From positions 1 to 38,397 of IMG/VR virus record IMGVR_UViG_3300036861_000825: 38,397 nt of DNA; one strand, 5' to 3'. The stretch is from a virus. Shown here one piece after another: positions 6,343-38,397 of the stretch. A model generated the notes under the pieces. The model was not told where the DNA came from, searched no databases, and worked only from the letters and a program-made list of their open reading frames with translations. The position numbers and the translations under genes were made by a program. The stretch's first letter is position 1. Every line of letters begins with the position of its first letter.

Positions 6343-6345
6343 TTC

Positions 6346-7213: not shown

Positions 7214-7401
7214 GCGGCGAGATCAAGGGCGTGCGCGAAGCGCGCGACGAGCTCCGTCGCCAGATGAAGGAGTCGGGTCACTCCGAGGCCTTCATCAAGA
7301 AGCAGGTCGACGGTGCGGTGAGGCGGGCCGATCAGCGGATCCGCGAAGGGAAGAACCCGAAGCCGATCTACGACGGCAAGCCCCTCAACACGAAGGACTG
7401 A
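7210..7401 (+). CDS. Small charged helical protein, 63 residues
   Basis: 63-residue protein starting at GTG 7210, which overlaps the previous stop (GTGA). It is almost entirely helical and charged (REARDELRRQMKESG and AFIKKQVDGAVRRAD), with a basic, proline-containing C-terminal tail. It may correspond to a small head-region protein of other phages, but I do not recognise it. The high GC at third codon positions and tight coupling on both sides support it as real. Confidence 0.55.
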   Translation: MSGEIKGVREARDELRRQMKESGHSEAFIKKQVDGAVRRADQRIREGKNPKPIYDGKPLNTKD

Positions 7402-7405
7402 TCCC

Positions 7406-8643: not shown

Positions 8644-8656
8644 TTCCGGAGACACC

Positions 8657-9702: not shown

Positions 9703-9705
9703 CCC

Positions 9706-10224: not shown

Positions 10225-10246
10225 AGATTCCTCGAGGAGAAACGCA

Positions 10247-10675: not shown

Positions 10676-10911
10676 ACCCGTTCGAAGGCGCGCAGAAGCT
10701 CGACGCCTCGGTCGTCGGCCTCGGCCTCGATCGGTTCGGTGGCGATCTCGATGCCTGGTGGGAACTCCCGGTCAAGCACCAAGTCGACATCCTCGCCCAC
10801 CTCGAGGTCGTGGCCGAACGCACGCGCCCACAGCGAGGCACCCGTGACCCGGACGCCGGCGGGCTTGCGCGCCTGAGGGAGCGCGCGCTCGCGCAGAGGG
10901 ACCGGCAATGA
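10672..10911 (+). CDS. Putative tail chaperone second part (T-like)
   Basis: 79-residue open frame, lying -1 relative to the G-like gene, from GTG 10672 (GTGA overlap) to 10911. It is read either as a separate protein by coupling or as the C-terminal extension of a frameshifted fusion. The upstream part of this frame, between the T run and 10672, is unusually Arg/Glu-rich (RAERERERARRERQ), like a charged linker. The body ends in a basic helix. The arrangement before the tape measure gene is that of G/GT chaperone pairs. The ATGA at its end couples it to the next gene. Confidence 0.5.
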   Translation: MNPFEGAQKLDASVVGLGLDRFGGDLDAWWELPVKHQVDILAHLEVVAERTRPQRGTRDPDAGGLARLRERALAQRDRQ

Positions 10912-11270
10912 GCGTCGAAATCAAAGTCGACCAGGAGCTCCAGGGGATGATCTCCATCCTCGAGGAGCAGGCACCGGCGGCGATGTCGAAGGCTCTCGAC
11001 GGCCGGCTCCTCGACATCGTGAACGAAGCGCGCGACCAGTGGCCGGTTCGGTCGGGCGCCTCGCAGCGAGCGCTCCGTATGCGCGTTGCGCGCGAGGGCG
11101 AGAAGATCGTCTACATCGTCGAGGATCGCATGCCCTACTCGGGGGCGATCCAGTTCAAGGGGTCGGAAGTCAACGTCGCCGAGCAGCTCGTGTTCGGGCC
11201 GGTCGAAGACGTGCTCGACGAGGTCCTCGAGGAATTCGGCGATCAGTTGTTCGGAGCCCTCGGTGGCTGA
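10908..11270 (+). CDS. HK97 gp10-like neck/tail completion protein
   Basis: 120-residue protein resembling the HK97 gp10-like (tail completion) family. It has an N-terminal helix, then ARDQWPVRSGASQRALRM (about residues 43-60), a strand KIVYIVEDRMPYSGAIQF (about 66-83) and a C-terminal amphipathic helix. The W-P-V-R-S-G and PYSGAIQF elements mirror the family's pattern of a substrate-like loop followed by P-Y-A-x-x-I-E-F. It usually joins head and tail. Its location between chaperones and tape measure is slightly unusual, since it more often precedes the tube gene. Starts in ATGA. Confidence 0.6.
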   Translation: MSVEIKVDQELQGMISILEEQAPAAMSKALDGRLLDIVNEARDQWPVRSGASQRALRMRVAREGEKIVYIVEDRMPYSGAIQFKGSEVNVAEQLVFGPVEDVLDEVLEEFGDQLFGALGG

Positions 11271-12849
11271 CGTAAACAAGTCCTTCCAGCTGAAGGTCCT
11301 CGCCGACCTGCGCGACTTCCAGAAGGAGCTCGCGAAGATCCCCGGCTACACGGACAAGAGCGCCGCCGCCGCGGCGCTCAAGCTCGAGCAGCAGTTCCTG
11401 AAGAGCGCTCAGACGGTCGGCAAGCACGGCCACGAGGCCGGCGGCAAGATCGCCTCGGCACTCGAGACGGCCCACCATTCGGCCAGGAAGCTCGGCGGGG
11501 CGCTGTCGGTCATCGACCCCCAGCTCGGTGGCCTCGTGCGCGAGGTGGGGCACCTGGCGGCCGGGCTCGGGCTCGCCGGCGCCGGCGGCGAGACGCTGCT
11601 CATCACGCTCGGCTCGGTCGCCATCGGCGCCCTCGGGATCGCCGAGGCCTACCACCACGTCCGCGAAGAGATCGAGGAGGCCTACAAGAAGGCCGAGGAG
11701 TCGTCGAAGGAAGCGCTCGAGGCGCAGTTCGGGGAAGTCGACGCCCACCGCTACATCAACGAAGCGAAGAAGAAGCTCGACGAGAAGTTCGCCCTCGAGG
11801 AGAAGGCGATCACCGCCGAGACGTTCCACAACTACATCCAGTTCGCCGAGGACACGGTCGACGTCTTCCTCGAAAGCGTGAAGGCGGTGAGCGACGTCGT
11901 CGCTCGCGTCACGCACATCGACTACTTCCACGAGCTCAGCGACGCGCTCGATACCGTCCAGGTGAACATCGACGAGCTCGCCGACAGCTACGACGTCGGC
12001 ACCATCGAGGACCAGACCAAGGCGCTCGACGGGCAAATCGAATCGCTGCTCGAGCTCGCCCGCGCGGTCGACGAAAAGAAGGACGCCGACAAGGAGGCGA
12101 AGAAGGCCGCCGAGGAGCACGCGCGCATCCTCGAGCTCGTCGCGGAGCGCGAGGAGTCGGTAGCCGAGTACGAGGACGCCCAGCGCCTGAAGGAAACCGC
12201 CGCGGCCGCTCAGGAGGTCGCGGACGCCCGGAAGGCCGAGATCGAGTGGCTCGACGAGCTCGTCCGGAAGAACGGCACGCTCAAGGAGCAGATGGAGGCG
12301 CACGCCGTCGTCGCCGCGTCGACGCGTGACGCGTGGCTCGATGCGTTCGGCTCGATCAACAACGCGATGGGGCAGACGTTCAACAACAGCAAGGAGGCCG
12401 CGATCGCTACGGCCTTCGTGAACATCGCGCTCGGCGCCACAAAGACGATCGCCGACCTCGGCTTCCCGACGGCCATCCCGTTCCTCATCGCAGAGGGCGC
12501 TGCCGGCGCCGCTGAGATCGCCCAGATCTCGAAGCAGTCCTACTCCCCGACGTTTCACTCGGGCGGCATCGTCGGCTACAACCGCGGCGACGGGAACGTG
12601 AGCGTCACCGCGCAAACCGGCGAGGCGTACCTGAACCGTACCGCGACGTCGCGACTCGGCCGTCGCGGTGTCGAAGAGCTCAACCGCGGCGGCGGGATGG
12701 GCGGCGCCATCTTCGTGCCCCAGATCTACGACCACCGCACGATGAACACCTGGGCCGTGCGCTCGCTCGGGAGCCTCGGGAGCCCGCACCGCGTGGCCGT
12801 CCAGAAGGCGCAGACGGGCGTGCGGCCGGGTCGGAGGCCCCGACTCTGA
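11263..12849 (+). CDS. Tail tape measure protein
   Basis: 528-residue protein whose GTG start at 11263 lies inside the end of the preceding gene. Long charged helices (about residues 140-350, rich in Glu, Lys, Ala) and a hydrophobic stretch at about 100-125 fit a tape measure, which sets tail length and threads into the host envelope. The end has a typical tape-measure pattern, FHSGGIVGYNRGDGNVSV then GEAYLNRTA (about residues 425-460). Another Ala/Gly-rich hydrophobic segment (about 380-420) may cross a membrane at DNA entry. Using the common ratio of about 0.15 nm per residue, the tail would be short, near 80 nm. That number is an estimate, not a measurement. Confidence 0.8.
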   Translation: MADVNKSFQLKVLADLRDFQKELAKIPGYTDKSAAAAALKLEQQFLKSAQTVGKHGHEAGGKIASALETAHHSARKLGGALSVIDPQLGGLVREVGHLAAGLGLAGAGGETLLITLGSVAIGALGIAEAYHHVREEIEEAYKKAEESSKEALEAQFGEVDAHRYINEAKKKLDEKFALEEKAITAETFHNYIQFAEDTVDVFLESVKAVSDVVARVTHIDYFHELSDALDTVQVNIDELADSYDVGTIEDQTKALDGQIESLLELARAVDEKKDADKEAKKAAEEHARILELVAEREESVAEYEDAQRLKETAAAAQEVADARKAEIEWLDELVRKNGTLKEQMEAHAVVAASTRDAWLDAFGSINNAMGQTFNNSKEAAIATAFVNIALGATKTIADLGFPTAIPFLIAEGAAGAAEIAQISKQSYSPTFHSGGIVGYNRGDGNVSVTAQTGEAYLNRTATSRLGRRGVEELNRGGGMGGAIFVPQIYDHRTMNTWAVRSLGSLGSPHRVAVQKAQTGVRPGRRPRL

Positions 12850-15800
12850 TGGCGACGAACCGGCTCCGCTCGACGGGACAGAAGGGCATCCTCCGGCAGA
12901 TGCCGACGCTCGGCGTGGCGCGCCTCGTCGCGGCGACGTCGTCGACGGGGCTCTCCGCGTACACGCAGGCCGGCGCATTCCCGGACGTGCCGCAAGCCGA
13001 CTCGACGGTGACGCAGCTCTTCCTGAAGGCGACGGGGACCATCCCCGAGGACGAGGACCCGATCACCGTCCAGACGCTCCACGGCGGCATGGTCGGGCTC
13101 GGCGAGGCCTCCTTCATCTGGTCGCAGGCGATCGACGACGACCTCCGGCCCGTCATCAACACGGGATCCGGAAAGGGCTCGATCGACACGGTCCGCGGAT
13201 GGGAGTGGCCGAGCTACGCGACCTACTACCAGGCGCTCGTGTTCGACGACGCGCCCGACCTCGAGCAGCTCGATTCGGCGACGCTCTCAGACGGCCGCGT
13301 GCTGCAGGCCTACCGGCTCTACGACTCGGGCAGCTCGGTGTCGGTCATCGTGAAGGTGCGCGCCCTCGACGGCACCTGGACCGACGTGACCGTCTACGAG
13401 AGCACGGACACGACGCGCACGCTGTTCCTCCCGTGCCTCGTCGTGCTGCCGGACGATCGCGTGATCGTCTACCTGATGAACTACCCGCCGGGCGGCGAGA
13501 CGTTCCAGATCCAGGCGCGCGTCATCTTCCCCGAGGATCTCACCGTCGGCGACTACGAGGTGGCGTGTCTCAAGTCGGCGCTCGCGATCGACACGTACGG
13601 GTCGCCCGATTCGACGAGCCAGCTCCGCGGCGCCATGAAACCGGACGGGACCTGCGTGCTCGTGCTCGCGACCGACATCAGCGGCACGACCCAGATCCTC
13701 CAGCTCGGGAGCTACGACTACGGGCACAGCTTCGACGTCGTGAGCTACGGCTCGGTCGACGAGGATCACCGCTACCCCGACGTCGTCTGGTGCGACGGCT
13801 GCTTCGTCGTCTCGTACGCGCGCGCGATCGAGGGCGAAGAGATCAACATCGACGTCGTCGCGGTGAAGCGGCTCGCGCACTACTTCGACAGCCTTGCGTC
13901 GGCGCCGACGCTTGCCACCTACAAGGAGACGGCGGACGGCGGCACGGACAGCGTCATCCTCGGGAACGCCCTCGTTGCGACGCCGGACGGGCTGCTCTAC
14001 GGCGTGAACACGGTCCGGAACGACGACTCGCAGGAGGTGTACGGCCACGTGCACGTGAGCCAGGACCTCGGCGACACGTGGACCGACAGCGCCGACGCCG
14101 ACAAGCCCAACGTCGGCTACGACTCGGGATCGATCGGACCCTCCTGGCTCTACTTCACGATCTCGACCTCACAGGAGACCGCGGCCGTTCCGTTCGGGAT
14201 CTGCGCGACCTACCAGGGGAACCGCGTCTACGTCGGCACGATCTTCGGGAAGGACAGCCAGACGAGCGACAACTTCGACGACGGGTCGCTGCTCGCGTTC
14301 TACCTCGGCGGATGGTCGAACCAACAGAAGACGTTCATCGACAACCTCGCGAAGACATCCGACGGGCAGCTCTCGTACAAGGAGGTTTTCTTCGGATTCG
14401 TCGATCCGGAATTCAACGGCTGGACCAAGACGACGTCGGGGACGGCGGCGGGCCTCCCGATCGCCGGCAAGCGCAACATCAACACGTCCGACGGCGGGAA
14501 GCTCGTCTACTCGCGCGGCGGCGGGACGAGCGTGTCCACGTGCTCGGGTGAGTTCGACGTGTCGTCGGCCGTCTTCAACACGATGGCCCAGGGCGACGTC
14601 GGGCTCGAGATCCAGATCGACAACGGGACGCTGAAGTACCAGCTCGGCCTCTACCTCGTCGGCTCGAGCAGCACGGCGACGGGCCTCCTCCTCCGCGACC
14701 GCGTCGCCGGCACGACGATCGCGACCATCCCAATCGACTTCACCGACGAGTACACGTACAAGTTCGAGCTCTACAACTCGAAATTCCAGCTCTTCTACCG
14801 ACCCGCCGATTCGACCGACGACCAGGTCTGGGAGCGCGCCAAGGACCCGTTCTCGGGCGACACGTACGCCGGCTACACGCTCACCTCGACGGCCTCGACG
14901 GGCGCCACCGCGAGCGTGTCGTGGGGGCACTTCTTCGCCACGACGACAGGCTCGACGGGCGACGCCATCTCGAACTGGCGCCGCGTGCTCGTAAGCTTCG
15001 GCACGAACCTCGCGACGAGTGCCGTGAGCTCGGGGATCAAGAACTGGTTCATCGCGAGCTACGTCGACTACGCGAGCACGGACGACTTCCACAACGGCTA
15101 CCACTACGTCGACTCGCCCGTCTGGGTCACCGACGGCGTGTACGTGAAGGCGTCGGGCGGCCCGACCTACTTCATGGACCAGTGGGAGATCGGCGCCGCG
15201 TACCAGTACGGCGTGCGGAATATTATGCCCGAGGTCGCGGCGAGCCCGCTCCGGCACTGGCGCTCGACGAGCGACGATGTGGACGTCACGATCACCTGGG
15301 TCGTCGGCGCCGAGGACATCGACACCGCGATCGCCGACGTCGTCGACGAGTGGCCGGGCGGCGAGTCGTTCTTCGTCTACCTGCAGGGGACCAACTTCAA
15401 GACGGCCGCCTTCTACGGTGTCGACGAGTCGGACAACGAGGAGAAGATCTGCGACTGCGTCTTCACGCGCTGGGGGACGCTCATCGTCGACACGCACGGC
15501 GGCACCACGATGGTGCAGTCCGGCGGCGGCACGCAGTACGTCGGGCTCGGCGAGCTCGCCGGCTCCTACATCATCCTCTCCGGGGACGGCCTGCCGCGGA
15601 AGATCACGACGAACAGCGAGGGGCAGCTCAACACGACGACGAAGCGCGTCACGGTGCGGTTCGAGGCGGACGGCAACGAGGACCAGGGGATCGACAACGA
15701 CGCGGGCAACTGCATCTTCGGAACGGTCGGCCTCTTCGCCAACCACGACATGCCGTCGAACCACTTCAAAGCGTACAAGCTGAAGATCCCCGCCCAGACG

Positions 15801-16301
15801 ACGGCCGAGGGCTACTTCAAGATCGGCAAGTGCATCTTCGGGCCCCCGATCGTGTTCGGGCTTGCCCCGTCCGAGGGCTTCTCGACGGAGCTCCCGCAGG
15901 ACAACACCCTCCTGAACGAGACGCAGGCCGGGCACACGGAGGCGCGCGTCTACAACGACACGCCGCGCATCAAGTCGCTGTCGTGGAACAGTGCGGACCA
16001 GACGATGCTCGACCAGGCGTCGCCCGACTACGTGCAGTTCGCCGTCGGCGACGAGCCCCAGGCGCTCTACGACGACGTCGCGCGTCAGCTCTACGGGCTC
16101 TACAGGGAGCTCCACGGGGCGGACGGCCTCGTCGTCTACTGTGACCAGATCCCGGCCGTCACGAACACGGGGCAGCTCGATCCGGAGCGCCTCATGTACG
16201 GGCGGTGCCGGAGCTCGTTCCAGGAGTCGAACATCGTCGGCGACGAGGGGACCGACGAGCTCGTGCAGGTCACGAACTGGACGATGAAAGAGGAGCTGTA
16301 G
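12849..16301 (+). CDS. Tail tip protein with sialidase-type Asp box
   Basis: 1150-residue tail protein starting in TGATG overlap with the tape measure stop. The first 120 residues resemble a tail-attachment region. Residues about 130-480 alternate strand and turn in a way expected of a beta-propeller. They include a clear Asp box, SQDLGDTWT at about residue 400, the fold marker of sialidases and related glycan binders. The middle (about 500-700) looks like a lectin or jelly-roll region, and the C-terminal 300 residues are again beta-rich and end in a conserved-looking WTMKEEL. A role in binding or trimming host surface polysaccharide is likely. Active-site residues for sialidase were not identified, so enzyme activity is uncertain. 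Confidence 0.6.
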   Translation: MATNRLRSTGQKGILRQMPTLGVARLVAATSSTGLSAYTQAGAFPDVPQADSTVTQLFLKATGTIPEDEDPITVQTLHGGMVGLGEASFIWSQAIDDDLRPVINTGSGKGSIDTVRGWEWPSYATYYQALVFDDAPDLEQLDSATLSDGRVLQAYRLYDSGSSVSVIVKVRALDGTWTDVTVYESTDTTRTLFLPCLVVLPDDRVIVYLMNYPPGGETFQIQARVIFPEDLTVGDYEVACLKSALAIDTYGSPDSTSQLRGAMKPDGTCVLVLATDISGTTQILQLGSYDYGHSFDVVSYGSVDEDHRYPDVVWCDGCFVVSYARAIEGEEINIDVVAVKRLAHYFDSLASAPTLATYKETADGGTDSVILGNALVATPDGLLYGVNTVRNDDSQEVYGHVHVSQDLGDTWTDSADADKPNVGYDSGSIGPSWLYFTISTSQETAAVPFGICATYQGNRVYVGTIFGKDSQTSDNFDDGSLLAFYLGGWSNQQKTFIDNLAKTSDGQLSYKEVFFGFVDPEFNGWTKTTSGTAAGLPIAGKRNINTSDGGKLVYSRGGGTSVSTCSGEFDVSSAVFNTMAQGDVGLEIQIDNGTLKYQLGLYLVGSSSTATGLLLRDRVAGTTIATIPIDFTDEYTYKFELYNSKFQLFYRPADSTDDQVWERAKDPFSGDTYAGYTLTSTASTGATASVSWGHFFATTTGSTGDAISNWRRVLVSFGTNLATSAVSSGIKNWFIASYVDYASTDDFHNGYHYVDSPVWVTDGVYVKASGGPTYFMDQWEIGAAYQYGVRNIMPEVAASPLRHWRSTSDDVDVTITWVVGAEDIDTAIADVVDEWPGGESFFVYLQGTNFKTAAFYGVDESDNEEKICDCVFTRWGTLIVDTHGGTTMVQSGGGTQYVGLGELAGSYIILSGDGLPRKITTNSEGQLNTTTKRVTVRFEADGNEDQGIDNDAGNCIFGTVGLFANHDMPSNHFKAYKLKIPAQTTAEGYFKIGKCIFGPPIVFGLAPSEGFSTELPQDNTLLNETQAGHTEARVYNDTPRIKSLSWNSADQTMLDQASPDYVQFAVGDEPQALYDDVARQLYGLYRELHGADGLVVYCDQIPAVTNTGQLDPERLMYGRCRSSFQESNIVGDEGTDELVQVTNWTMKEEL

Positions 16302-16305
16302 GACC

Positions 16306-19300
16306 GTGCTCACGGGCTCGAAGCGCATGTCGCGCATCGGCGACAAGGACACCTTCTGGGTGCTCGAGCTCGAGGTAGCGGGCCAGTCGTACTACTTCGG
16401 CGACGTCTCCCGCGACATCACGAACCGGTACGGGAAGCCCACCGTCATCCACGTGCTCGGCTGCAACCTCGTCGACGCGTTCACGAAGGCCTTCGACGTC
16501 GCGACGGACTACAGCGCCGACTCGAGCGTGTCGTTCGAAGGGCTCCGGCTCCCCATCCAGCTCCCCGACGCCTTCCGTGCCGGCGAGACGATGGTGGCCA
16601 ACCGCGCGCTCCTCTCGCTCGTGCGCGATGGCGAGGACTACGGCCAGAAGTGGACGCAGGTCGCCGGCGTCGTCGAGAGCCCGAACATCATGGACGTGCA
16701 GGCTCCCGAGCACACGGTCAGCTTCACGGTCCAACAGGAGCGCGGCAGGGTGCAGCGCTTCCCGGACGACGACTACGTCATCCAGCCCGGCTGGATCGCG
16801 TCCGTGAATCTCGCGCAGACGCCCGCCGAGCTCTTCGGGTGGGACAACGACGACATGCTGTCCGACGACGACAGCGACCACGCCGGCGACGCCGGCGAGC
16901 TCACGCCCGAGTGGCTCGCGTTCTACCTGTTCGGCAGCACCGACATCACGCTCGAGATGCCGACCGAGTACGCCGACAGCCCCGTCTACGCGCCGTTCGT
17001 CTTCGGGCGTCCGGGCATCGACAGCCTCACCGCGCTTTCGCGCGACCTCGACAGCAACGGCACCCTCGACTCCGGGATCCCCGACGAGCGGGCGCTTGGG
17101 TACTACACGACGTCCGGCCAGACGATCGCGGTGCGCGCGCTCGAGGTGGAGGACGACGAGGGGCTCAAGCTCCACGACGCCGTCGACGAGTACGACAGCT
17201 CGCTGAACATCGACACCGACGAGTCGGGGAGCGACAAGTTCTCCTTCGTGTTCGAGTTCCGCGAGACCGGGCTCTACGCCCGCGTGCTCGTCCACGCCGG
17301 CGAAGCGCTCCAGGTCGGCTCGACCCTCCGCATCGTCGACCGGGCGAACTTCGGGACGCCGTACGACACGACGGGCGACTACACGGTGCAGCTCGCCTAC
17401 ACGACGAACGGGCGGCCCTACAGCTACGTCGACATCCCCGCGGACTACTCGCGCTACCTTCACATCCTCGACCCGGTCGACCGCGACCACGACACGGCGG
17501 ACGGGGGCGGCGTCTTCATCGTCCTCGACGGCGACGACAGCGAGTTCCACATCTTCAACGAGGAGGCGAGCGGGCCGCTCGATGGCGTCGGCGGGCACAG
17601 CTTCGTCGACGAGGACGTCGTGAAGGGGATGTGGGACATCTTCTACGTCTGCTGGATCTCGGCACTGCGGACCGGCGGCAACATCGGCGACGCGCTCGAG
17701 GCCTTCTTCGCCATCCCGGTGATCCAGCGCATCTTCGAGGGCTCGAACGCCTCAGGCCGGACGTACCAGGACTACCACCTCTCGTGCTTCAACTTCGCGA
17801 TGGATCCGGGCGGCGGGGACGACCCGTTCGTCATCCGCTACCCGGTCGTCGACGACCTCACGAACTACGGCGTGACGAACTGGACCGTCGGTGGGCAGCG
17901 CTACCTCGACGACGCGTGCTGCGAGAACCCGGCCGAGCTCATCATGTTCATGTGCGACTGCGCGGGCGTTCAGTACGACCGCGGGTCGCTCTTCACGCTG
18001 CGCGACAAGTTCCGGAACTGGAAGATCGGCGGCGTCATCGACGACGCCACGGACGTGCTCTCGTACGCGGTCGACGTGCTGCAGTCGTTCCTCCCGTTCT
18101 CGCTCGGGCGATCCCCGGACGGCATCACTGCGACCTTCTGGAATTGGGCCGCGACGAAGCTCGACGCGTGCCACCACTTCGTCGAGGGCGTCGACCTCGA
18201 GGTGGTCGGTGACGGCGTGGCGGCCGACGAGTCGAACGTCATCCGCTCGCTCCGGATCTCCGGCCGCAAGGTGTCGTGGCTCTCGCAGGGCAAGCCGCCG
18301 TTCGCCACCACCACCGCGGTGACGGACGACCTCCTCACCGAGAAGGAGCTCAACAAGCTGAACCGGCTCCGCTCCCACCAGGGGATCACGACCGGATGGA
18401 AGCGCGGGCACTCGGCGGCGCGGCGCTACGCCCGCTACCTGCACGAGCTCCGAACGAAGTACGGCACGTGGGACTTCTCGCAGAACTTCGAGGTGACCGA
18501 GGGTGCGGACGAGTACTGGCGCACGAACAACTACACGGGCGACATCGTGTCGGCGAACCAGGGGCACTGGTTCGAGAACCCGCTCACCTTCCCGATCGAA
18601 GACGAGCGCGAGGAGCAGTGGTCGCGGTTCATGCCGAGCCCGATCCTCATCGCCGCGTTCAGTCGCAACAAGGAGCTCGACGCCGAGGACCTGGTGCTCG
18701 AGATCGAGGAGCTCTACGACACGGACACGCTGGGGCGGTCCGCGGACTCGCTCATCGCCGCGCGCGCAAACCCCGTGCTCACGTTCCAGGGCATCAGCGG
18801 GAAGGAGCTCGGCTGGGTCGTCGAAGGCGACGAGGTCCGGGTGACGGCGCCGACGTTCGGCATCTACGACGAGGAGTGCTTCGTCGCCGAGAAGACGTGG
18901 CAGCAGACCAACGTCGCGTGGCGGTTCCGGCTGAAGCGGAAGCCGCAACCGGCCGCGCACCCGACACCGAACGCCGAGGTGTCGACGCCGGCCTCAGAGA
19001 TGGTGGACACCGAGGCGGCGCTCACCGTGTTGTGGGTGGATGCCGAGGGCGGCGAGAGTCCGGACGAGCTCTGGGATCTCAGCGATGTCGACGGCGACCT
19101 CGTGTTCTCCGGGTCGACTGTCCGCGACGACGGCGGCTGGTCGAGCTCCCCGAGCTTCGCCATCCTCGCGACGGGCGACGGCGGGTTCCAGGTCTGGGAC
19201 TCCGGTTTCGCGGATCCGCCCTACGTGGCAACGGTCCACAGCCAGATCCTCCAGTTCGGGGCAGACGGCGACTTCTGGTTCGCGTGCGTGCTCTACCCGG

Positions 19301-19737
19301 CCTCGAACGGATCGAACCCACGCATCATCCTCGGGCACGAGCGGACGGCGACGAGCTTCTTCGTCATCCGCCAGACGACCGCCGGCAGGATCGAGCTCGT
19401 GAAGAACGTCTCGGGGGTCGAGACGACGATCCTCACGTCCACGTCTTCCGTCTCGCTCGTCGGGCCAACGCAGGTCCTCTTCAACTGGCACGGCGGCTTC
19501 ACGTCCGTTGGGATCAACGGGGTGTGGGAGGCGAGTGCTGTCGACCACACCGACTACAACCAGTTCAGCTCGGGGACGGGGAGCGGAACCGTCCGCTTCC
19601 TCGACTCGGGCCTCAGTGGCACCGCCGGCGACAACTACATCGGCCTGATCGACGACATCGTCTGCCGAATCGGGTCCTACTGGACGAACGCTACGAGCGT
19701 CGGCGCTACGTACACGCACCCGCTCACCCCAACTTGA
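16306..19737 (+). CDS. Tail hub/receptor protein with LamG-like C-terminus
   Basis: 1143-residue protein five bases after the previous stop, with a GTG start and AGGAGCTGTAGGA upstream. The N-terminal 130 residues (VSRDITNRYGKPTVIHVLG and following) resemble a tail-tip or baseplate module. Residues about 150-880 hold several long beta and mixed regions. Residues about 905-1143 look like a laminin G/concanavalin-like lectin domain, with alternating strands such as VLFNWHGGFTSVGINGVWE and FLDSGLSGTAGDNYIGLIDDI. Such C-terminal lectin folds bind sugars. The protein is probably the central hub or the receptor-binding tip. Its stop overlaps the TTGACG of the second structured leader. Confidence 0.6.
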   Translation: MLTGSKRMSRIGDKDTFWVLELEVAGQSYYFGDVSRDITNRYGKPTVIHVLGCNLVDAFTKAFDVATDYSADSSVSFEGLRLPIQLPDAFRAGETMVANRALLSLVRDGEDYGQKWTQVAGVVESPNIMDVQAPEHTVSFTVQQERGRVQRFPDDDYVIQPGWIASVNLAQTPAELFGWDNDDMLSDDDSDHAGDAGELTPEWLAFYLFGSTDITLEMPTEYADSPVYAPFVFGRPGIDSLTALSRDLDSNGTLDSGIPDERALGYYTTSGQTIAVRALEVEDDEGLKLHDAVDEYDSSLNIDTDESGSDKFSFVFEFRETGLYARVLVHAGEALQVGSTLRIVDRANFGTPYDTTGDYTVQLAYTTNGRPYSYVDIPADYSRYLHILDPVDRDHDTADGGGVFIVLDGDDSEFHIFNEEASGPLDGVGGHSFVDEDVVKGMWDIFYVCWISALRTGGNIGDALEAFFAIPVIQRIFEGSNASGRTYQDYHLSCFNFAMDPGGGDDPFVIRYPVVDDLTNYGVTNWTVGGQRYLDDACCENPAELIMFMCDCAGVQYDRGSLFTLRDKFRNWKIGGVIDDATDVLSYAVDVLQSFLPFSLGRSPDGITATFWNWAATKLDACHHFVEGVDLEVVGDGVAADESNVIRSLRISGRKVSWLSQGKPPFATTTAVTDDLLTEKELNKLNRLRSHQGITTGWKRGHSAARRYARYLHELRTKYGTWDFSQNFEVTEGADEYWRTNNYTGDIVSANQGHWFENPLTFPIEDEREEQWSRFMPSPILIAAFSRNKELDAEDLVLEIEELYDTDTLGRSADSLIAARANPVLTFQGISGKELGWVVEGDEVRVTAPTFGIYDEECFVAEKTWQQTNVAWRFRLKRKPQPAAHPTPNAEVSTPASEMVDTEAALTVLWVDAEGGESPDELWDLSDVDGDLVFSGSTVRDDGGWSSSPSFAILATGDGGFQVWDSGFADPPYVATVHSQILQFGADGDFWFACVLYPASNGSNPRIILGHERTATSFFVIRQTTAGRIELVKNVSGVETTILTSTSSVSLVGPTQVLFNWHGGFTSVGINGVWEASAVDHTDYNQFSSGTGSGTVRFLDSGLSGTAGDNYIGLIDDIVCRIGSYWTNATSVGATYTHPLTPT

Positions 19738-24996: not shown

Positions 24997-25512
24997 CTAC
25001 CTCGACTCTGGCGCTGGTCGCTCGCGGAGGAGCTCCTCGAGCTGGTCGCGCATGTGCGGGGTAAGCGCGTACCATTCGCCGCGAAGATGGTGTTCGCGGA
25101 ACCGAGCATGCAGGAGCCGCTCATCGCGGACGGTGCCGCGGATGGCACCGAGCGGCACGAGGGGCATCGGACAAGCCGTCTGGAGCGACTCGATCCGGAG
25201 GGTTGGCTCGCGCGCAGAGAAGCCGATCTTGACGGCGTTCAGGCCCTGCGCCTCGACGAAGTAGACGAACCCCGCGGCGATCCCGCGCGGCGTTTCGTCC
25301 TGCGTCACGGCTTCGTCGACAAACGCGCTCTGCAGGATGCGCTCCGCCTCATCGCGCGTCGCCCACCCGGACCAGAGAGCGCGCCATTCGCGCTCGACCT
25401 TCACCTCGAGGAACCAGTACCAGTGCTGGCCCGAGGGACCACGCTTCGCGGTCATGCGGTAGTCGCCGACGCGTAGCGACTTCGGGCGCCCGCGCTTGGA
25501 GAGACGCGACAT
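24997..25512 (-). CDS. GIY-YIG-type nuclease with integrase N-domain
   Basis: 171-residue protein with two domains. Residues about 7-65 match the N-terminus of the integrase encoded at 25972-27093: RGRP, then AKRGPxGxxWYW, then a conserved E, K and W. Residues about 80-150 fit the T5orf172/MUG113 branch of the GIY-YIG superfamily, with FVYFVEA (82-88), AVKIGFS (93-99), Arg106, Glu131 and HLRGEWYAL (142-150). The start at ATG 25512 was chosen because it aligns with the integrase start (both begin MSR); a longer form from 25554 is possible. The gene lies immediately downstream of a cluster of GGGAACA repeats. It may nick DNA at or near the same sites as the integrase, or regulate it. Known: family nuclease fold. 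Inferred: role. Confidence 0.7.
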   Translation of the reverse strand: MSRLSKRGRPKSLRVGDYRMTAKRGPSGQHWYWFLEVKVEREWRALWSGWATRDEAERILQSAFVDEAVTQDETPRGIAAGFVYFVEAQGLNAVKIGFSAREPTLRIESLQTACPMPLVPLGAIRGTVRDERLLHARFREHHLRGEWYALTPHMRDQLEELLRERPAPESR

Positions 25513-25524
25513 CAGCGCCCCACC

Positions 25525-25680
25525 GGGAACAGATCGTAGGAACACTGTTCCCATATATGCCGTTTTCTGGGAACAGCCTGTCGAATTATCGGCGTTGTAC
25601 CTACTACAGACTGTACATCATGTACTGGATGGATCCGCTGCTGCTGCGGATCGTAGAGGCGTGTTCCCGTTTTTGTTCCC
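25525..25680. other. Candidate attP with GGGAACA arm-type repeats
   Basis: Non-coding, comparatively AT-rich stretch (25513-25681) between a DUF3850 gene and the nuclease gene. It carries five copies of GGGAACA or its complement TGTTCCC, at 25525, 25546, 25569, 25662 and 25674. GGAACACTGTTCC (25539-25551) is a perfect 6+1+6 palindrome. Between the repeat groups are the palindrome GTACATCATGTAC (25613-25625) and the inverted repeat GATCCG 25632-25637 / CGGATC 25647-25652. Clusters of short repeats on both sides of a core are what a tyrosine-recombinase attachment site looks like. An operator for the nuclease gene is the alternative. The exact crossover is not identified. Confidence 0.5.
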
Positions 25681-25681
25681 A

Positions 25682-25975
25682 TCACGCCGGCGACGGAGGG
25701 TTCGGCTCGTACGGCCGGATCCCCATGCACACGAAGCCGTCGGCGAGTGGCTTACCGACCGGGGCGAGATGGTGGGCCCAGGCGACGTACGTCACCACGA
25801 CGTCGACCGATCGACCGGTGTGCTCCTGCGTGCGCGGGTCCCACTCCTCGAGCCGCAGCACGTTGCCAACCGTGAACCCGCGGTCGTCGCGGCGGAGCTC
25901 GAACGTCTTCGAGCCGTCGAGCACGGCGGCGAAGTAGATCGGCCACGTCTTCAACCGGTGGACCGCGCGACTCAC
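25682..25975 (-). CDS. DUF3850 (ASCH/PUA-like) protein
   Basis: 97-residue protein from GTG 25975, overlapping the integrase stop (GTGA). It matches DUF3850 well: HRLKTWPIYFAAVLDGSKTFELRRDDRGF (starting near residue 6) then VGNVLRLEEWDP, a TGR segment, and a VVVTYVAW strand. DUF3850 proteins have an ASCH/PUA-like fold thought to bind RNA. The function in phages is unknown. Coupling to the integrase suggests co-expression in the same regulatory unit. Confidence 0.75.
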   Translation of the reverse strand: MSRAVHRLKTWPIYFAAVLDGSKTFELRRDDRGFTVGNVLRLEEWDPRTQEHTGRSVDVVVTYVAWAHHLAPVGKPLADGFVCMGIRPYEPNPPSPA

Positions 25976-27093
25976 TCCTCGCCTCCCTTCATCGCGATCA
26001 CCTTCCCGCGCGGGAGCTTCCCGAGCGTCGCCACCGCGGCGGTCCTCTCGTCGAGCGTCCCCTTGCTTGCGTAGTACGTGAGCATCACCGCGGGGTGGTG
26101 GCCCGTCACCGCGGCGGCGACCTCCGCGCGCACGCCGGCGCGTCGCATCTCGTCGACGACGAGACGCCGCACCCCGTGCGACGTGAAGGCCTTCACGCCG
26201 GCGAGCTCGCACCAGCGGTCGAGGTCGGACCGGAGCGCGCTGTAGGTCGCGTCCGTGAAGATGCGGCCCTTCCGCTTCGCCTCGTCGGGCTCGAGCGCCA
26301 GGAGGCGATCGTACGCCTCCTTCGCGAGCGGCACCTTCCGGGGTCCCGTCTTCCCGTCGAGCTCGACCCAGCCGTCCGCGATCGCTTCCCACTCGAGCGC
26401 GCCGACCTCGCCGATCCGGGCGCCGGTCGCGAGCTGGACGTGGAGCGCGGCCGCGTGCCGGGGGCGCCGCTCCTCAAGGAGACGGATCACCGCGGCGACG
26501 TCGCCGACGGTCGGCGTGTGCTTCTTCCGCGCGCGGGTCGGGTGCTTCCGCTTTTCCTCGGAGGTGACGTGCGGGAGCGTGAGCGGCACCGTCACGAGGC
26601 GGCGCTGCTGCCCCCAAATCCACGCCATCTTGATGTAGCGGAGCTCGAGCCGGATGGTCGAGCTCGGCGTCCCCGACCGCATCCGGCGGTTCTTGAAGTC
26701 CTCGAGGGCACCGAGCGGGAGCGCCTCGAGGCTCACGTCGCCGAGCAGCTTCGTGACCCGGGCGAGCACGTACCGCATGCTCTCGATCGTCGGCAGCGCG
26801 ACGTCGGTGGTCTCGAAGTAGGCGCGCCACATTCCGAGCAGCTCCTTCACGGTCTCGCAGCGGGCCCGCATCTGCGTCCCCGGCGAGCTCGGCGAGGAGA
26901 CGATCCGCGCCATCGCGCGGTCGAGCTCGTTGCGGTCGGCCCACAGCGCGACGCCGATCGGCATCCACTTCCCGTCGATCTTCCGCTCGACGTGCCAGTA
27001 CCAGCGATCGCCCTTCGGCCCGCGCTTCGCGCGCGCGCGCAGGTCGGCCAGGGGGACGGCCGCCGGGCGCCCGCGCGTGGGTTCCCGAGACAT
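25972..27093 (-). CDS. int: Tyrosine recombinase (phage integrase)
   Basis: 373-residue integrase. An N-terminal arm-binding-like domain (about residues 7-65) is followed by a SAM-like core-binding domain (about 80-170) and the catalytic domain (about 195-345). The catalytic set is visible: Arg226 in TGARIGEV, Lys248 in DGKTGPRKV, His306 and Arg309 in SHGVRRLV, His332 in TGHHPAV, and the nucleophile most likely Tyr341 in TYYASK. This carries out integration and, with an accessory factor, excision of the prophage. The ATG at 27093 is chosen because the downstream nuclease starts with the same residues; an upstream extension to 27399 has poor coding character. It is coupled to the downstream DUF3850 gene. 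Confidence 0.9.
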   Translation of the reverse strand: MSREPTRGRPAAVPLADLRARAKRGPKGDRWYWHVERKIDGKWMPIGVALWADRNELDRAMARIVSSPSSPGTQMRARCETVKELLGMWRAYFETTDVALPTIESMRYVLARVTKLLGDVSLEALPLGALEDFKNRRMRSGTPSSTIRLELRYIKMAWIWGQQRRLVTVPLTLPHVTSEEKRKHPTRARKKHTPTVGDVAAVIRLLEERRPRHAAALHVQLATGARIGEVGALEWEAIADGWVELDGKTGPRKVPLAKEAYDRLLALEPDEAKRKGRIFTDATYSALRSDLDRWCELAGVKAFTSHGVRRLVVDEMRRAGVRAEVAAAVTGHHPAVMLTYYASKGTLDERTAAVATLGKLPRGKVIAMKGGEE

Positions 27094-29688: not shown

Positions 29689-30159
29689 TCAGGGGAAGAG
29701 GCTTGCGGCCTGCTCGTCGACGGCCGTGTGCGGGTTCGCCGGCGGCGGCGGCTCGAGCGGGAGCGGAGCAGGGGATGTCGCCGGCGACGATGAAACCGCC
29801 TCGCCGCCGGCGTTCCCCTGTGGCTTGCATCGGGTCCCGTTCGGCAGGTTGTGCGCGCGGAACCCGTCCTTCGTTTTCTGCACCTCCTTGCCGCAATCCG
29901 GGCACGTCTCCTTCTGGCGAGGGACACGTGACTCTGTGGCGTCCGGCTGCGGCGCTGCTGGTTCTTCTCCCTGTGAGTCGTCCTCGAGGCGCTCGATCGC
30001 GTCGTCGAGCAGGGCCTCGATCTGGGCGTGGTACTCGCTCACGACCGCCGCGCGGGCCTGCTCGTACTCGCGCTTCGCTCGATCGAGCGCCTCGTCGCGC
30101 GCCGCGGCGATCGCCTCGCGGCGCATCTCGATGAACTGTACGAGCTCTCCGTTGGTCAT
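29689..30159 (-). CDS. Zinc-finger protein with coiled coil, 156 residues
   Basis: 156-residue protein from ATG 30159. An N-terminal charged helical region (about residues 1-60) precedes a probable zinc finger with CPDCG (86-90), His103 and Cys111. A Pro/Ala/Ser-rich tail follows. It sits next to the Cas4-like nuclease and overlaps its end by four bases. It may be a recombination accessory, but there is no direct support. Confidence 0.6.
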   Translation of the reverse strand: MTNGELVQFIEMRREAIAAARDEALDRAKREYEQARAAVVSEYHAQIEALLDDAIERLEDDSQGEEPAAPQPDATESRVPRQKETCPDCGKEVQKTKDGFRAHNLPNGTRCKPQGNAGGEAVSSSPATSPAPLPLEPPPPANPHTAVDEQAASLFP

Positions 30160-31421
30160 GGTGTTCCCTTCGATTGGCGGAAGACTCCAAACTTCGGCGC
30201 CGTCGACGTCGTGATGAGCTCGTCCATCAGCGCGCCGCGGCGTTCCTTCCAGGCCTTGTCGCCGCGGTCGAACGGGGCGAGCGCCTGCGCGAGCGAAGTG
30301 ATCGAGGTCACACCCGGGTCGAGCGCACGGAGCAGTCCGAGGACCTCGCCGTGCTCGGCATCCCACACGCCGGCCTGGTCCTCGGACACCTGGAACCAAC
30401 GGTGCGCGATCGCGCGCCACGCCTCGTCGCGGGGGACACGCTCGTCCTTCGGCAGCCAGCCGACGACGCCGCGGTCGATCTCGATCGGCGCCTCCTCGGT
30501 GAGCCGGCGCGCGTGCTGCTTCAGCTCGGCCGCCATCGCCTCGGCGACCGCGAGCCGCGTGCCGACCGCACGCCGGCGCGCGAGCTCGTCGTCGAGCCCA
30601 TCGAGCAACGACCCGCGCATCCAGGCGTGCGCCGCGTCGCAGCGCGTGATGTACGGGCAGCCGTCGCAGCCGGCACCGGGCGTCGCGATCCGCTTCCCGT
30701 CGGCGCCGCGCGCGTCGGCCGCGGCGATCGCTAGCTCGAGGTCACGGGTCCACTTGGCGAGCTCGGCGCGCCCCGCCTCGTCGAGCACGATCGTCTTCGC
30801 GTAGAGCTTGCGCGTCCGGAGCGCACCGATCTCGAGCCGGACGGCGTCGGCGTTCGGGTACGCGAGCGCGGCGAGGACGGCCTGGCCGCGCATCTGGACG
30901 CTGTCGAGGTCGGACTCGTCCGCCTGCCAAGAACTCTTGTAGTCGAGACACACCGCCGTCTCGAGCCCCTCGCCCTCCTGGTCCTCGTCGACGTCGACGG
31001 TCTCGCTCCAGACAAGGTCGTAGATGGCACGGTAGTGCGCGGCGCTGCTGCCGTACTCGACGAGGTGCCAGCGACGGTCGACGGCGACGCCGCGCTCGGC
31101 CTTCGCGCCCGGCGCGATCGGATGCTCGCCATGCCACGCGAGCGCGAGGCCGACACCCTCGATGACGGCGCCCGGATCGAGCGGCGGCTCGGGCACGCCG
31201 TCGAAGCTTCGGCCCTTCGTCGTGAGGTGCTCGGCCACGGCCTGCGCGACGGTGTGCGGATCCGCACCGCCCGGCATTCCGGCGAGGCCCTGTAGCACCG
31301 CGTGCGCGGCGACGCCGACCGCGAACAAGCCACGGTCGCGCGGTACGCCGGCCTCGATGAAATCCAACGCCTTCATGCAATGACGGGCGGCCAGCATGAG
31401 GTGCGTCGACCTACTCGGCAT
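30156..31421 (-). CDS. Cas4-like Fe-S PD-(D/E)XK nuclease
   Basis: 421-residue nuclease of the Cas4/AddB-like group. A cysteine at residue 15 (AARHC) and the trio Cys252, Cys255 and Cys261 (CDGCPYITRC) fit the four-cysteine iron-sulfur site of that group. Catalytic motif candidates are His40, Asp135 in IYDLVW and the D-x-K pair Asp160-Lys162 in CLDYKSS, followed by a Q-rich QxxxY-like helix. The C-terminal 130 residues are an additional region. The start at ATG 31421, 11 bases inside the upstream gene, is chosen because it includes the first Cys. It probably resects DNA ends for phage recombination. Confidence 0.75.
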   Translation of the reverse strand: MPSRSTHLMLAARHCMKALDFIEAGVPRDRGLFAVGVAAHAVLQGLAGMPGGADPHTVAQAVAEHLTTKGRSFDGVPEPPLDPGAVIEGVGLALAWHGEHPIAPGAKAERGVAVDRRWHLVEYGSSAAHYRAIYDLVWSETVDVDEDQEGEGLETAVCLDYKSSWQADESDLDSVQMRGQAVLAALAYPNADAVRLEIGALRTRKLYAKTIVLDEAGRAELAKWTRDLELAIAAADARGADGKRIATPGAGCDGCPYITRCDAAHAWMRGSLLDGLDDELARRRAVGTRLAVAEAMAAELKQHARRLTEEAPIEIDRGVVGWLPKDERVPRDEAWRAIAHRWFQVSEDQAGVWDAEHGEVLGLLRALDPGVTSITSLAQALAPFDRGDKAWKERRGALMDELITTSTAPKFGVFRQSKGTP

Positions 31422-32055
31422 CGAGAACCTCTGCGGCAACGTTGCCGTAGGTCCGGCCTGCCCGGCAGTTGCGAATGTTCCGTGCGTTGGTTGCGAAGCG
31501 CTGCGCCAGCACGGACGAGGACTCGCCCGACCGCAGGACCTCGAGAACATCATCGTGCGAGAGGTGCGCGCGGGCCTTCCTGCGCGCGTGCGCGCCAGGC
31601 AGATGGGCGAACGACTTGCCGCCCACGACGTCGCCGAGCTCGGCGGCGCCGATGGGGTACAGCAACGCGAGCTCGCGGACGGTTGAACCTGTTGCGTAGA
31701 GCGTGCGGATCGCGAGCACCTGACGATCCGTCAGCTTCGCGTTGGCGACCAGCTCACCGCGCGGTTGCCTGTTCCGACGCTTCTCGTGCATGTCGCGGTT
31801 GTTGTCGCCGCGAGTGCCGAGCCACAGGTGTCTCGGGTTGCAGCACGGGCGGTTGTCGCACGTGTGGAGCACGCAGAGGGGGCCCGGGTCGCCCTTCGCG
31901 AGCGTGTACGCGCGCCGATGCGTCAGCAGCGTACGCCAGCTGCCATCCACCTTGGCGTGACACTCGCCGTAGCCTTCGCCGCCGAGTCGACCGGTCCAAG
32001 GCCAGCAGGCGTCGTCGCCGCCGGACCGATCGACGCGCGCCCAGAAGTCCGTCAC
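31411..32055 (-). CDS. HNH endonuclease with C-terminal HTH repeats
   Basis: 214-residue HNH nuclease. The core CVLHTCDNRPCCNPRHLWLG (61-80) followed by TRGDNNRDM gives the HNH_3-type beta-beta-alpha metal motif (His64, Asn73, His76). The C-terminal half has two helix-turn-helix-like repeats (ELALLYPIGAAELGDVVGG and LAQRFATNARNIRNCRAG), typical of homing-type nucleases with NUMOD-like DNA-binding units. It starts at GTG 32055 inside the stop of the upstream gene and overlaps the next start. This tight coupling argues it is an established part of the operon, not a recent insertion. Confidence 0.85.
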   Translation of the reverse strand: MTDFWARVDRSGGDDACWPWTGRLGGEGYGECHAKVDGSWRTLLTHRRAYTLAKGDPGPLCVLHTCDNRPCCNPRHLWLGTRGDNNRDMHEKRRNRQPRGELVANAKLTDRQVLAIRTLYATGSTVRELALLYPIGAAELGDVVGGKSFAHLPGAHARRKARAHLSHDDVLEVLRSGESSSVLAQRFATNARNIRNCRAGRTYGNVAAEVLDAE

Positions 32056-32942
32056 TCGCCACCCCCACCCGGCAGGTCGACGTCGACGACGATCCCCTTC
32101 GTGTCCTCGAGGAGCGCCTTCGCCGTGCGCTGCTCGTCGTCGGTGAGTGCGACGAGCAGCGGCGCGGATCCGCCGAGCTCGGCGAGGCGCAGCTTCTGGT
32201 TGTAGAGGAACTCGACGACGTCGCCGTCGACGGAGGCGCTCACGACCGGGAACGCGCGGCCGGACGCACCGCCCTCACCGCGGCGCTTCTTCCGGCTCAG
32301 CGTGAGCATGAACGGCAGCCCGTAGACGGAGAAGCTTTCGAGGTGGAGCTGCTCGGCCTGCGTGCGCACGTGCTCGAAAAGGCCGTGCAGACTCGCGACG
32401 CTGTTCCACGATCCGGTCGTCCACTTCGTGAGCAGCGACGGGAGCGTCGAGCCCTCCTTCCATCGCGGGCGGAAGAGGAGGCGGCCGAACGGCTTGCACG
32501 GTGTCGGCCCGGACTTCCCGTTCACCATCGTCGGCTGCCGGAACGGACACTTCTCGTTCGGGCACGGGATGTCTTGGTACTCGCCGTCGATCCAGCGCTT
32601 CGCCGCGTGCCCGTTCCCGATGCACGTCGGCGCCTTTGCCGGATGCGGCGGGTAGCCCTGGAGCACCTGCGCTTTCAGGCTGTACGAGAAGGCCGCGTCG
32701 ACGTCGACGTGCACGATGTGGCCGCGGATGATGGTGCGGTGTTCGGGCTTCTCGTTGTTGAACGCAGCGAACGCAGGGTGGAGCGGACGCACGCCGTCGA
32801 CCTCGTTCGGGACGACGAAGTAGAAGCGGTCGTTGTCGACGGGCGCGCCGCGATCGCCCTTCCGGCCGATCGACAGGCAGCAACCGATCGGCTCGCGCGC
32901 GGTGAGCCCGTCGATCCCGCGGATGTCGGGGACGACGTTCAC
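32052..32942 (-). CDS. Gp3-like (recombination directionality factor-like) protein
   Basis: 296-residue protein resembling the Gp3-like family of phage proteins, annotated as recombination directionality factor-like. Features I recognise are the front region PIGCCLSIGRKGDRG, the four Cys (107, 127, 132, 149, with CPNEKCPF and CKPFGRLLF) that likely bind zinc, the TTGSWNSVASLHGLFEHV segment (about 175-192) and the strand-rich YGLPFMLTLSRKKRR. The name comes from phiC31 Gp3, which directs serine integrases. Here the integrase is of the tyrosine type, so another DNA-binding or recombination role is likely. It neighbours an HNH nuclease and a Cas4-like nuclease. GTG start is coupled. Confidence 0.65.
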   Translation of the reverse strand: MNVVPDIRGIDGLTAREPIGCCLSIGRKGDRGAPVDNDRFYFVVPNEVDGVRPLHPAFAAFNNEKPEHRTIIRGHIVHVDVDAAFSYSLKAQVLQGYPPHPAKAPTCIGNGHAAKRWIDGEYQDIPCPNEKCPFRQPTMVNGKSGPTPCKPFGRLLFRPRWKEGSTLPSLLTKWTTGSWNSVASLHGLFEHVRTQAEQLHLESFSVYGLPFMLTLSRKKRRGEGGASGRAFPVVSASVDGDVVEFLYNQKLRLAELGGSAPLLVALTDDEQRTAKALLEDTKGIVVDVDLPGGGGE

Positions 32943-33199
32943 GGCGCCTCGCCGAGCAGGTGCGACTCGTCGGCGACGAGGCATGCGCGGCACAGACGAT
33001 GCGGACCGTGGAGCGGGACCTGCCGGCCGCAGTCGGTGCAGCAGAGATCGCAGATGCCGTGGCTGTCGCCGACTACGCCCTGGCCGTCCTTCGTTGCGTA
33101 GACGCGCCGACACCAGTGGCAGACGCATCGGATGACGGTGCTGTTCTCGAGCTCGAGCGGCGTGACGTCGTCGAGGAGGATGTAGTCGACGTCGTTCAT
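32939..33199 (-). CDS. Multi-CxxC zinc-binding protein
   Basis: 86-residue protein from ATG 33199 (ATGA overlap). It has ten Cys arranged as CVCHWC, CDLCCTDC and CRAC (residues about 25-75), enough for two zinc sites. The N-terminus is acidic. Part of the leading block of small early genes. Not recognised beyond its Cys pattern. A GTG at 33205 would add two residues. Confidence 0.6.
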   Translation of the reverse strand: MNDVDYILLDDVTPLELENSTVIRCVCHWCRRVYATKDGQGVVGDSHGICDLCCTDCGRQVPLHGPHRLCRACLVADESHLLGEAP

Positions 33200-38092: not shown

Positions 38093-38374
38093 GGTTCTGT
38101 CGGCGCCTGTCGGCGGGTGTCGACGGGGGTGTCGACACCCGAGAGCATGCGTTTGCGGCTGCGATGCGCGCGAATCATGGGGGTTCTGTCGACGGATCCG
38201 GGGGTCCGATCTCGCGTTCACGTGCACGGATCGAAAACGCGATCGCGAAAGCGCGAATGCGTCGACAGAACCTTCGCACGACGGGCGATAGAGAGAGAAT
38301 GATTACCTTTCTTCCTACCGTTTGGCTGCGGTGGGGTTCTGTCGACACCCCCGTCGACACCCGCCGACAGAACC
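38093..38374. repeat. Nested inverted repeats, candidate origin region
   Basis: Non-coding tail of the window. Copy A (38093-38140) holds four TGTCGRC units starting at 38098, 38108, 38118 and 38130, a spacing of 10, 10 and 12 bp. Copy D (38335-38374) has GGTTCTGTCG 38335-38344 paired with CGACAGAACC 38365-38374 and is an inverted match of A. Between them GGTTCTGTCGAC (38182-38193) and GTCGACAGAACC (38261-38272) form a 12-bp inverted repeat across 67 bp. An AT-rich stretch near 38287-38323 lies inside. Position next to the replication genes favours an origin or partition site. Bases 38375-38397 show no gene. Confidence 0.65.
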
Positions 38375-38397
38375 TTCTACGATCGGCTGCTGGAGCG

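What the first reader, a model, noticed from the sequence alone, without database searches (positions are those of the whole stretch)
24997..27093. Integrase and GIY-YIG-type nuclease share their N-terminal domain
The first 65 residues of the nuclease at 24997-25512 match the first 65 of the integrase at 25972-27093. Both start MSR, keep RGRP near residue 7, AKRG and then WYW at residues 31-33, with further matches after that. The catalytic parts are unrelated. If this domain binds arm-type sites, a nuclease has been built onto the integrase's addressing module. It could compete with the integrase at attP, cut the empty attachment site of a rival, or act as a directionality switch. This pairing is not one I know as a described system.
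Basis: partly seen in the sequence, partly recalled or inferred. Interest (0 to 1): 0.85.

Follow-up and report, generated by a model that had tools for sequence, protein, structure and literature searches.

The report
Nuclease wearing the integrase's DNA-binding domain
A temperate phage carries a small DNA-cutting enzyme whose front end shares ancestry with the front end of the phage's own integrase, which suggests a nuclease aimed at the DNA sites that integrases recognise; a similar trick is known in one phage that cuts a parasite's replication origin, but not with an integrase domain as far as could be found.

Summary
On the minus strand, a 171-residue MUG113/T5orf172 (GIY-YIG superfamily) nuclease (25512-24997) and a 373-residue tyrosine integrase (27093-25972) share residues 1-61 at 43% identity, 61% similarity (pairwise E 1e-13; 0 of 5000 shuffles as good). 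The catalytic parts are unrelated, and both keep their catalytic residues. The shared module is predicted as beta-beta-beta-alpha behind a basic RGRP tail and sits where integrases carry their arm-site-binding domain; it could not be assigned to a known family. The noncoding stretch 25513-25681 holds 5 of the window's 8 GGGAACA copies, its most surprising 7-mer cluster, flanking a 7-7-7 inverted repeat: attP-like, and also the nuclease's upstream region. Closest precedent: ICP1 Odn, a T5orf172 nuclease whose N-terminus resembles a satellite's RepA_N (42%/61%) and which cuts that satellite's origin. Best reading: an Odn-like chimera aimed at integrase arm-type sites, probably of rival elements and/or regulating its own promoter. 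Target, cleavage and attP status are inferred. No second example turned up in the phage, plasmid, viral and bacterial collections searched, but the host lineage was not identified. New variant of a known kind.

The parts
24997..25512 (-). Chimeric nuclease gene, 171 aa: N-domain 1-61 shared with the integrase, MUG113/T5orf172 GIY-YIG-superfamily domain about 81-163
   Evidence: Pfam MUG113 E 8e-11 (42.8 bits, cut-off 22.3), T5orf172 1.3e-5 (26 bits, cut-off 20)
25330..25512 (-). Shared N-terminal module in the nuclease (residues 1-61): basic RGRP tail, then predicted beta-beta-beta-alpha
25972..27093 (-). Tyrosine integrase, 373 aa, catalytic R226, K253 (probable), H306, R309, H332/H333, Y340/Y341 present
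   Evidence: Phage_integrase E 5e-11; phrog_1 E 6.7e-34, residues 27-364
26911..27093 (-). Shared N-terminal module in the integrase (residues 1-61)
25682..25990 (-). DUF3850/ASCH-like gene between the integrase and the repeat region (ORF as translated; true start near 25980, overlapping or abutting the integrase end)
   Evidence: DUF3850 E 9.8e-23
25513..25681 (.). Noncoding, locally AT-richer stretch, candidate attP and nuclease upstream region
   Evidence: (50-bp blocks at GC 0.48-0.62 against 0.68 for the window)
25525..25531 (+). GGGAACA repeat 1 (candidate arm-type site or operator)
25546..25552 (-). GGGAACA repeat 2
25569..25575 (+). GGGAACA repeat 3
25662..25668 (-). GGGAACA repeat 4
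25674..25680 (-). GGGAACA repeat 5
25632..25652 (.). Inverted repeat GATCCGC-TGCTGCT-GCGGATC between repeats 3 and 4, candidate core-type site (inferred from shape only)

Best explanation
The gene at 25512-24997 is a domain chimera: a T5orf172/MUG113 nuclease that carries the N-terminal DNA-binding module of an integrase (donor: this phage's integrase or a relative's). Shown: homology of the modules, intact catalytic residues on both sides, a clustered repeat array beside the nuclease start. Inferred: the module binds arm-type repeats of the GGGAACA kind. The nuclease is thereby recruited to attP-like DNA and cuts near it, most usefully on rival temperate phages or satellites whose integrases use related arm sites, as ICP1 Odn does to a satellite's origin. 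On its own genome it would sit on the repeats upstream of its own start and act mainly as a repressor of its own gene, spared from self-cutting by diverged specificity or a missing cleavage site, as I-TevI does.
For: N-domain homology E 1e-13, 0/5000 shuffles. The same-genome integrase is the only one of nine tested that matches. GIY-YIG residues Y84, K95-I-G97, R106, E131, H135, G145-E-W147 all kept. The integrase keeps R-K-H-R-H-Y. Its match to the PHROG integrase profile begins at residue 27, so the module lies in the arm-domain position. Predicted beta-beta-beta-alpha at pLDDT about 70-81 for residues 11-60, the topology known (own knowledge) for arm-binding domains. GGGAACA cluster: p 6e-8, the top 7-mer cluster in the window, against a best of 4.5e-5 in 60 Markov simulations. 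Precedent with almost the same numbers: Odn N-terminus 42% identical, 61% similar to RepA_N, cuts the cognate origin (PMC8263062). Repression/cleavage duality of I-TevI as cited in PMC10448857.
Against: No binding or cleavage data. The N-domains are 57% different, so specificity may have parted. Nuclease and presumed target lie in one genome, unlike Odn, so self-cutting must be explained. The module matches no Pfam arm-domain family, profile comparison with eight arm domains is weak (P 0.018, probability 2.6%; a hand-made alignment gives chance), and structure searches are inconclusive. No second example and no rival with the same core found.
Confidence: 0.42

Rival explanations
1. Ordinary free-standing homing endonuclease: a T5orf172 selfish gene that picked up an integrase-type DNA-binding domain by shuffling and homes into the int-attP neighbourhood of related phages lacking it. 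The integrase connection only sets the homing site.
For: T5orf172 genes are typical phage homing endonucleases with shuffled DNA-binding domains (PMC10448857). Gene sits beside int at a module boundary. HNH_3 gene elsewhere in the same phage. A Rhizobium phage has a GIY-YIG gene directly beside its integrase.
Against: No empty allele is known (no related phage found). The repeats it would recognise are not disrupted by its own insertion, so its own copy would stay cuttable. In that survey T5orf172 genes lie mostly by terminase, ribonucleotide reductase and capsid genes, and most carry zinc-finger domains.
Confidence: 0.25
2. Regulator of integration: the protein competes with or helps the integrase on attP arm sites (a directionality or timing factor), nuclease activity being weak, nicking or vestigial. 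Integration at the core would part the nuclease gene from the far half of the region and so switch its promoter context.
For: The repeat array is both upstream of the nuclease start and attP-like. Overlap of an att region with a promoter controlled by the integrase is established for KplE1 intS (PMC2951348).
Against: All conserved nuclease residues are kept, which a pure binding factor would not need. No known directionality factor is a GIY-YIG protein (own knowledge).
Confidence: 0.18
3. The shared module is a general nucleic-acid-binding tail (RGRP AT-hook-like plus a small sheet) spread through this phage lineage, with no common target; the GGGAACA array serves another protein, for example a repressor of the nuclease promoter.
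For: RGRP matches the AT-hook core (own knowledge). Module not assignable to arm-domain families. Repeats 1-3 lie within 65 bp of the nuclease start, as operators would.
Against: Only two copies in the whole 38 kb, both in one neighbourhood and one of them in the arm position of an integrase. The repressor-like gene lies 8 kb away.
Confidence: 0.15

Closest known systems
Odn (Gp88) of Vibrio phage ICP1 (PMC8263062)
   Same: T5orf172 nuclease with a DNA-binding N-domain homologous to that of another protein with a defined site; similarity nearly equal (42%/61% there, 43%/61% here); small single gene; catalytic Arg and Glu kept.
   Different: Donor type is an integrase, not RepA_N. Donor and nuclease are in one phage, not phage versus satellite. 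The presumed target would be attP-like arm sites, not an origin. Cleavage untested here.
T5orf172 homing endonucleases of phages (PMC10448857)
   Same: Same nuclease superfamily, modular architecture, domain shuffling.
   Different: Those mostly carry CapR/DUF723/DUF4397 zinc fingers and lie near structural or nucleotide-metabolism genes; none with an integrase N-domain is mentioned in the passages read.
Lambda-type bivalent tyrosine integrases with arm-binding N-domains
   Same: The integrase here has the catalytic residues, an N-terminal module of arm-domain size and predicted topology, and a nearby repeat array; best PDB sequence hits are lambda Int (weak, E 0.27-0.5).
   Different: N-module not recognised by Pfam arm families; repeats not shown to be bound.
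I-TevI (GIY-YIG homing endonuclease and autorepressor)
   Same: GIY-YIG nuclease on a separate DNA-binding module, candidate binding sites at its own promoter.
   Different: Different binding domain; nuclease domain N-terminal in I-TevI, C-terminal here.
GIY-YIG gene beside int in Rhizobium phage RHph_I3_18
   Same: T5orf172-like gene directly upstream of an integrase gene.
   Different: No N-domain shared with its integrase.

Membership tests
MUG113 / T5orf172 (GIY-YIG superfamily) nuclease | Score above the Pfam gathering cut-off | tested here: met
   42.8 bits against 22.3 (MUG113) and 26 against 20 (T5orf172)
MUG113 / T5orf172 (GIY-YIG superfamily) nuclease | Conserved Y, KIG, Arg and Glu positions | tested here: met
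   Y84, K95-G97, R106, E131, also H135 and GEW 145-147, aligned with seven phage members
MUG113 / T5orf172 (GIY-YIG superfamily) nuclease | DNA cleavage | not testable with these tools
   no biochemistry available
Tyrosine recombinase / phage integrase | Catalytic domain and R-K-H-R-H-Y set | tested here: met
   Pfam E 5e-11, phrog_1 E 6.7e-34; residues located by motif
Integrase arm-DNA-binding domain (Pfam Arm-DNA-bind families / AP2-like) | Sequence match to a family profile | tested here: inconclusive
   No Pfam match for either N-domain; but the control, an ordinary phage integrase N-terminus, itself scored only 15.4 bits, under the cut-off
Integrase arm-DNA-binding domain (Pfam Arm-DNA-bind families / AP2-like) | Three-stranded sheet packed on a helix | tested here: inconclusive
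   beta-beta-beta-alpha predicted at moderate confidence; no arm domain among the structure matches listed
Integrase arm-DNA-binding domain (Pfam Arm-DNA-bind families / AP2-like) | Position before the core-binding and catalytic domains of an integrase | tested here: met
   phrog_1 alignment of the integrase spans residues 27-364
Odn-type directed nuclease | T5orf172 domain fused to a DNA-binding domain homologous to a protein with a defined site | tested here: inconclusive
   Fusion and homology shown (comparison); that the partner domain has a defined DNA site is inferred
[quoted passage not shown]
   Its homologue in this genome is the integrase N-domain and no RepA_N match appears in Pfam
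Odn-type directed nuclease | Cuts the site of a competing element | not testable with these tools
   no competitor found, no cleavage assay
attP of a lambda-type system | Repeated arm-like sites flanking an inverted-repeat core, near int | tested here: met
   five GGGAACA flanking GATCCGC-N7-GCGGATC
attP of a lambda-type system | Core identical to a bacterial attB | tested here: inconclusive
   host unknown; exact core absent from IMG/VR; bacterial genomes were not searched with it
Homing endonuclease | Empty allele in a relative, cut at the insertion site | tested here: inconclusive
   no relative of this phage found

The most novel reading that the evidence does not exclude
A temperate phage encodes a nuclease that uses the integrase's own address module to find and cut the attachment sites of rival temperate phages or satellites, so blocking their integration or destroying their excised circles: a superinfection-exclusion system acting at attP.
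Probability: 0.27. Interest if true: 0.85.

Novelty: new variant of a known kind. Interest (0 to 1): 0.62.

Why it matters
If the nuclease reads integrase arm sites, it would extend the Odn principle (take a DNA-binding domain with a known address, attach a nuclease) from replication origins to integration sites, and show that recombinase address modules are interchangeable parts in phage conflicts. It also gives a directly testable pair: two proteins, one 169-bp DNA target, two catalytic mutants.

Tried and rejected
Searches for relatives: exact-peptide and degenerate scans of IMG/VR with the nuclease, integrase and N-domain gave none (the RGPxGxxWYW hits are terminases and other unrelated ORFs, or no real ORF). 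Rows invented only to widen the search pattern were put into alignments A2 and A3; they carry no evidence. Genome collection: N-domain none; the T5orf172 query gave 17 bacterial and 6 viral loci, none whose N-part resembles another ORF of its locus (one locus has two tandem T5orf172-like ORFs). N-domain profile: 0 of 398 genomes in one phylum, 1 weak partial hit (E 1e-3, 32 positions, not pursued) in 396 genomes of another. Integrase: no match at the set thresholds (E 1e-10 or 1e-8) in about 1,060 genomes of four phyla, partly the same genomes, so the host lineage was not reached. Myxobacterial phage Mx8 was considered: it has a T5orf172 protein, but its N-part and its integrase do not match these. 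Plasmids: nothing useful. Phage hit H38 (E 2) was chance. The single-sequence model of the whole nuclease was poor (pLDDT 40); the N-domain model was fair (65), but Foldseek and VIA-align gave no match that stands out (best Z 4.2, unrelated proteins), and lambda Int or Tn916 Int N-domains were not in the lists. LexA-type reading of the repeats rejected by eye: the spacings (GTTC N8 GTTC, GAAC N9 GAAC, GAAC N3 GTTC) fit no SOS box known to me. No sigma-70-like promoter found near the genes. No PADLOC defence family for the nuclease.

Full report
WHAT IS THERE. The window is a whole virus record of 38,397 bases, 68% GC, with no close relative found. Structural-type genes run on the plus strand to about 24 kb, and an integration/early block runs on the minus strand from 33 kb to 24 kb. 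Within that block, reading along the minus strand: tyrosine integrase (27093-25972), a DUF3850/ASCH-like gene (to 25682), a noncoding 169-bp stretch, the nuclease (25512-24997), and an unknown 238-residue gene (24987-24271).

THE SHARED DOMAIN IS REAL. Residues 1-60 of the nuclease align to 1-61 of the integrase with 43% identity and 61% similarity, one gap, E 1e-13. In 5000 shuffles no score came near (141 against a maximum of 71), and the two catalytic parts match nothing in the other protein. The shared residues include MSR, RGRP, D-R, AKRGP-G, WYW, E-K, W and WA-R-E-R. Against nine integrases, only the one encoded next door matches. DNA identity is 61% and 16 of 21 shared residues in the ungapped part use the same codon, which in a GC-rich genome is weak evidence on age.

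THE REST OF EACH PROTEIN. The nuclease C-part passes the curated cut-offs of MUG113 and T5orf172, both GIY-YIG-superfamily nuclease domains, and keeps every position invariant in an alignment with seven phage relatives. None of the T5orf172 relatives read here, from eight phage records, 17 bacterial loci and six viral loci, carries this N-part. The integrase has the full tyrosine-recombinase residue set and a strong integrase-profile match that begins inside the shared domain at residue 27. The domain therefore sits where bivalent integrases carry the arm-site-binding domain; that is why the integrase is taken as the donor type. This is inference from position.

WHAT THE DOMAIN IS. AlphaFold2 on the two window sequences gives beta-beta-beta-alpha with pLDDT 70-81 over residues 11-60. 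The single-sequence model of the nuclease shows the same order of elements at low confidence. A three-stranded sheet with a helix is the known topology of arm-binding and AP2-like domains (own knowledge). Sequence profiles do not assign it, and structure searches list no convincing relative. So DNA binding is likely from context, and family membership is open.

THE DNA BETWEEN THE GENES. GGGAACA occurs eight times in the window, five of them within 156 bp, in the order plus, minus, plus, then an 86-bp gap, then minus, minus. It is the most surprising 7-mer cluster of the window (p 6e-8 given its own count; the best in 60 third-order Markov sequences was 4.5e-5). The gap holds GATCCGC-TGCTGCT-GCGGATC, a 7-7-7 inverted repeat of the shape of a core site. 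Because phage genes flank this stretch on both sides in an unintegrated-looking record, an intact attP is expected near int, and this is the best candidate. It is equally the upstream region of the nuclease, whose start codon is about 13 bp from the first repeat. Neither binding nor attP function is shown.

HOW IT MOST LIKELY WORKS. The nearest precedent is Odn of ICP1 (PMC8263062): a T5orf172 nuclease with an N-domain 42% identical and 61% similar to the RepA_N domain of a satellite, which sends the nuclease to the satellite's origin. By analogy this protein would be sent to integrase arm-type sites. Since the phage carries such sites itself, full identity of specificity would be suicidal. 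The likely ways out are diverged specificity, a separate cleavage requirement as in I-TevI, or repression without cleavage at home. Targets would then be attP-like regions of rival temperate phages or satellites with related integrases. Control of the nuclease by the integrase or by itself is plausible, since att-promoter overlap with integrase autorepression is established for KplE1 intS (PMC2951348). I give this whole chain 0.42, the specific anti-rival reading within it 0.27, a homing endonuclease 0.25, an integration regulator 0.18, and an unrelated general binding tail 0.15.

KNOWN OR NEW. T5orf172 proteins swap DNA-binding domains often, and one such swap is a known anti-satellite weapon (PMC10448857; PMC8263062). 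Paper searches for a T5orf172 nuclease with an integrase domain found none; that library lacks most subscription papers. This is a new variant of a known kind. Limits: one example only, host lineage unknown and not reached by the genome searches, and no functional data.

Noticed in passing
31411-32055 (-): HNH_3 endonuclease gene (Pfam 8.7e-7; PHROG endonuclease 2e-28) overlapping a PD-(D/E)XK nuclease/exonuclease ORF (30156-31553): a possible second homing-type nuclease in the same block.
   Followed up: no
25682-25990 (-): DUF3850/ASCH-like gene between the integrase and the candidate attP, overlapping or abutting the integrase stop.
   Followed up: partly
L015 2899-4741 (Rhizobium phage RHph_I3_18): A T5orf172-type GIY-YIG gene lies directly upstream of the integrase gene; the two share no domain.
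   Followed up: partly
L021 3001-3225 (Mycobacterium phage Nigel, record 4725-4949): An open T5orf172 frame lies where the record annotates no gene, between gp6 and the RuvC-like gene.
   Followed up: no
25532-25559 and 25649-25675: GATCGTAG followed 5-6 bases later by TGTTCCC occurs on both sides of the candidate core: the two arms look like diverged copies of one another.
   Followed up: no
38118-38397: Small clusters of GTCGACA (4 copies) and ACAGAAC (3 copies) at the right end of the record, after the DnaB/DUF3987 gene.
   Followed up: no
32052-33128 (-): Match to PF18897 Gp3-like (recombination directionality factor-like) above its cut-off, in the same strand block as the integrase.
   Followed up: no
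1653-19737 (+): The large structural-type genes that were scanned have no significant Pfam or PHROG match, and the one searched in IMG/VR by exact peptides had no relative: a very divergent virion.
   Followed up: partly
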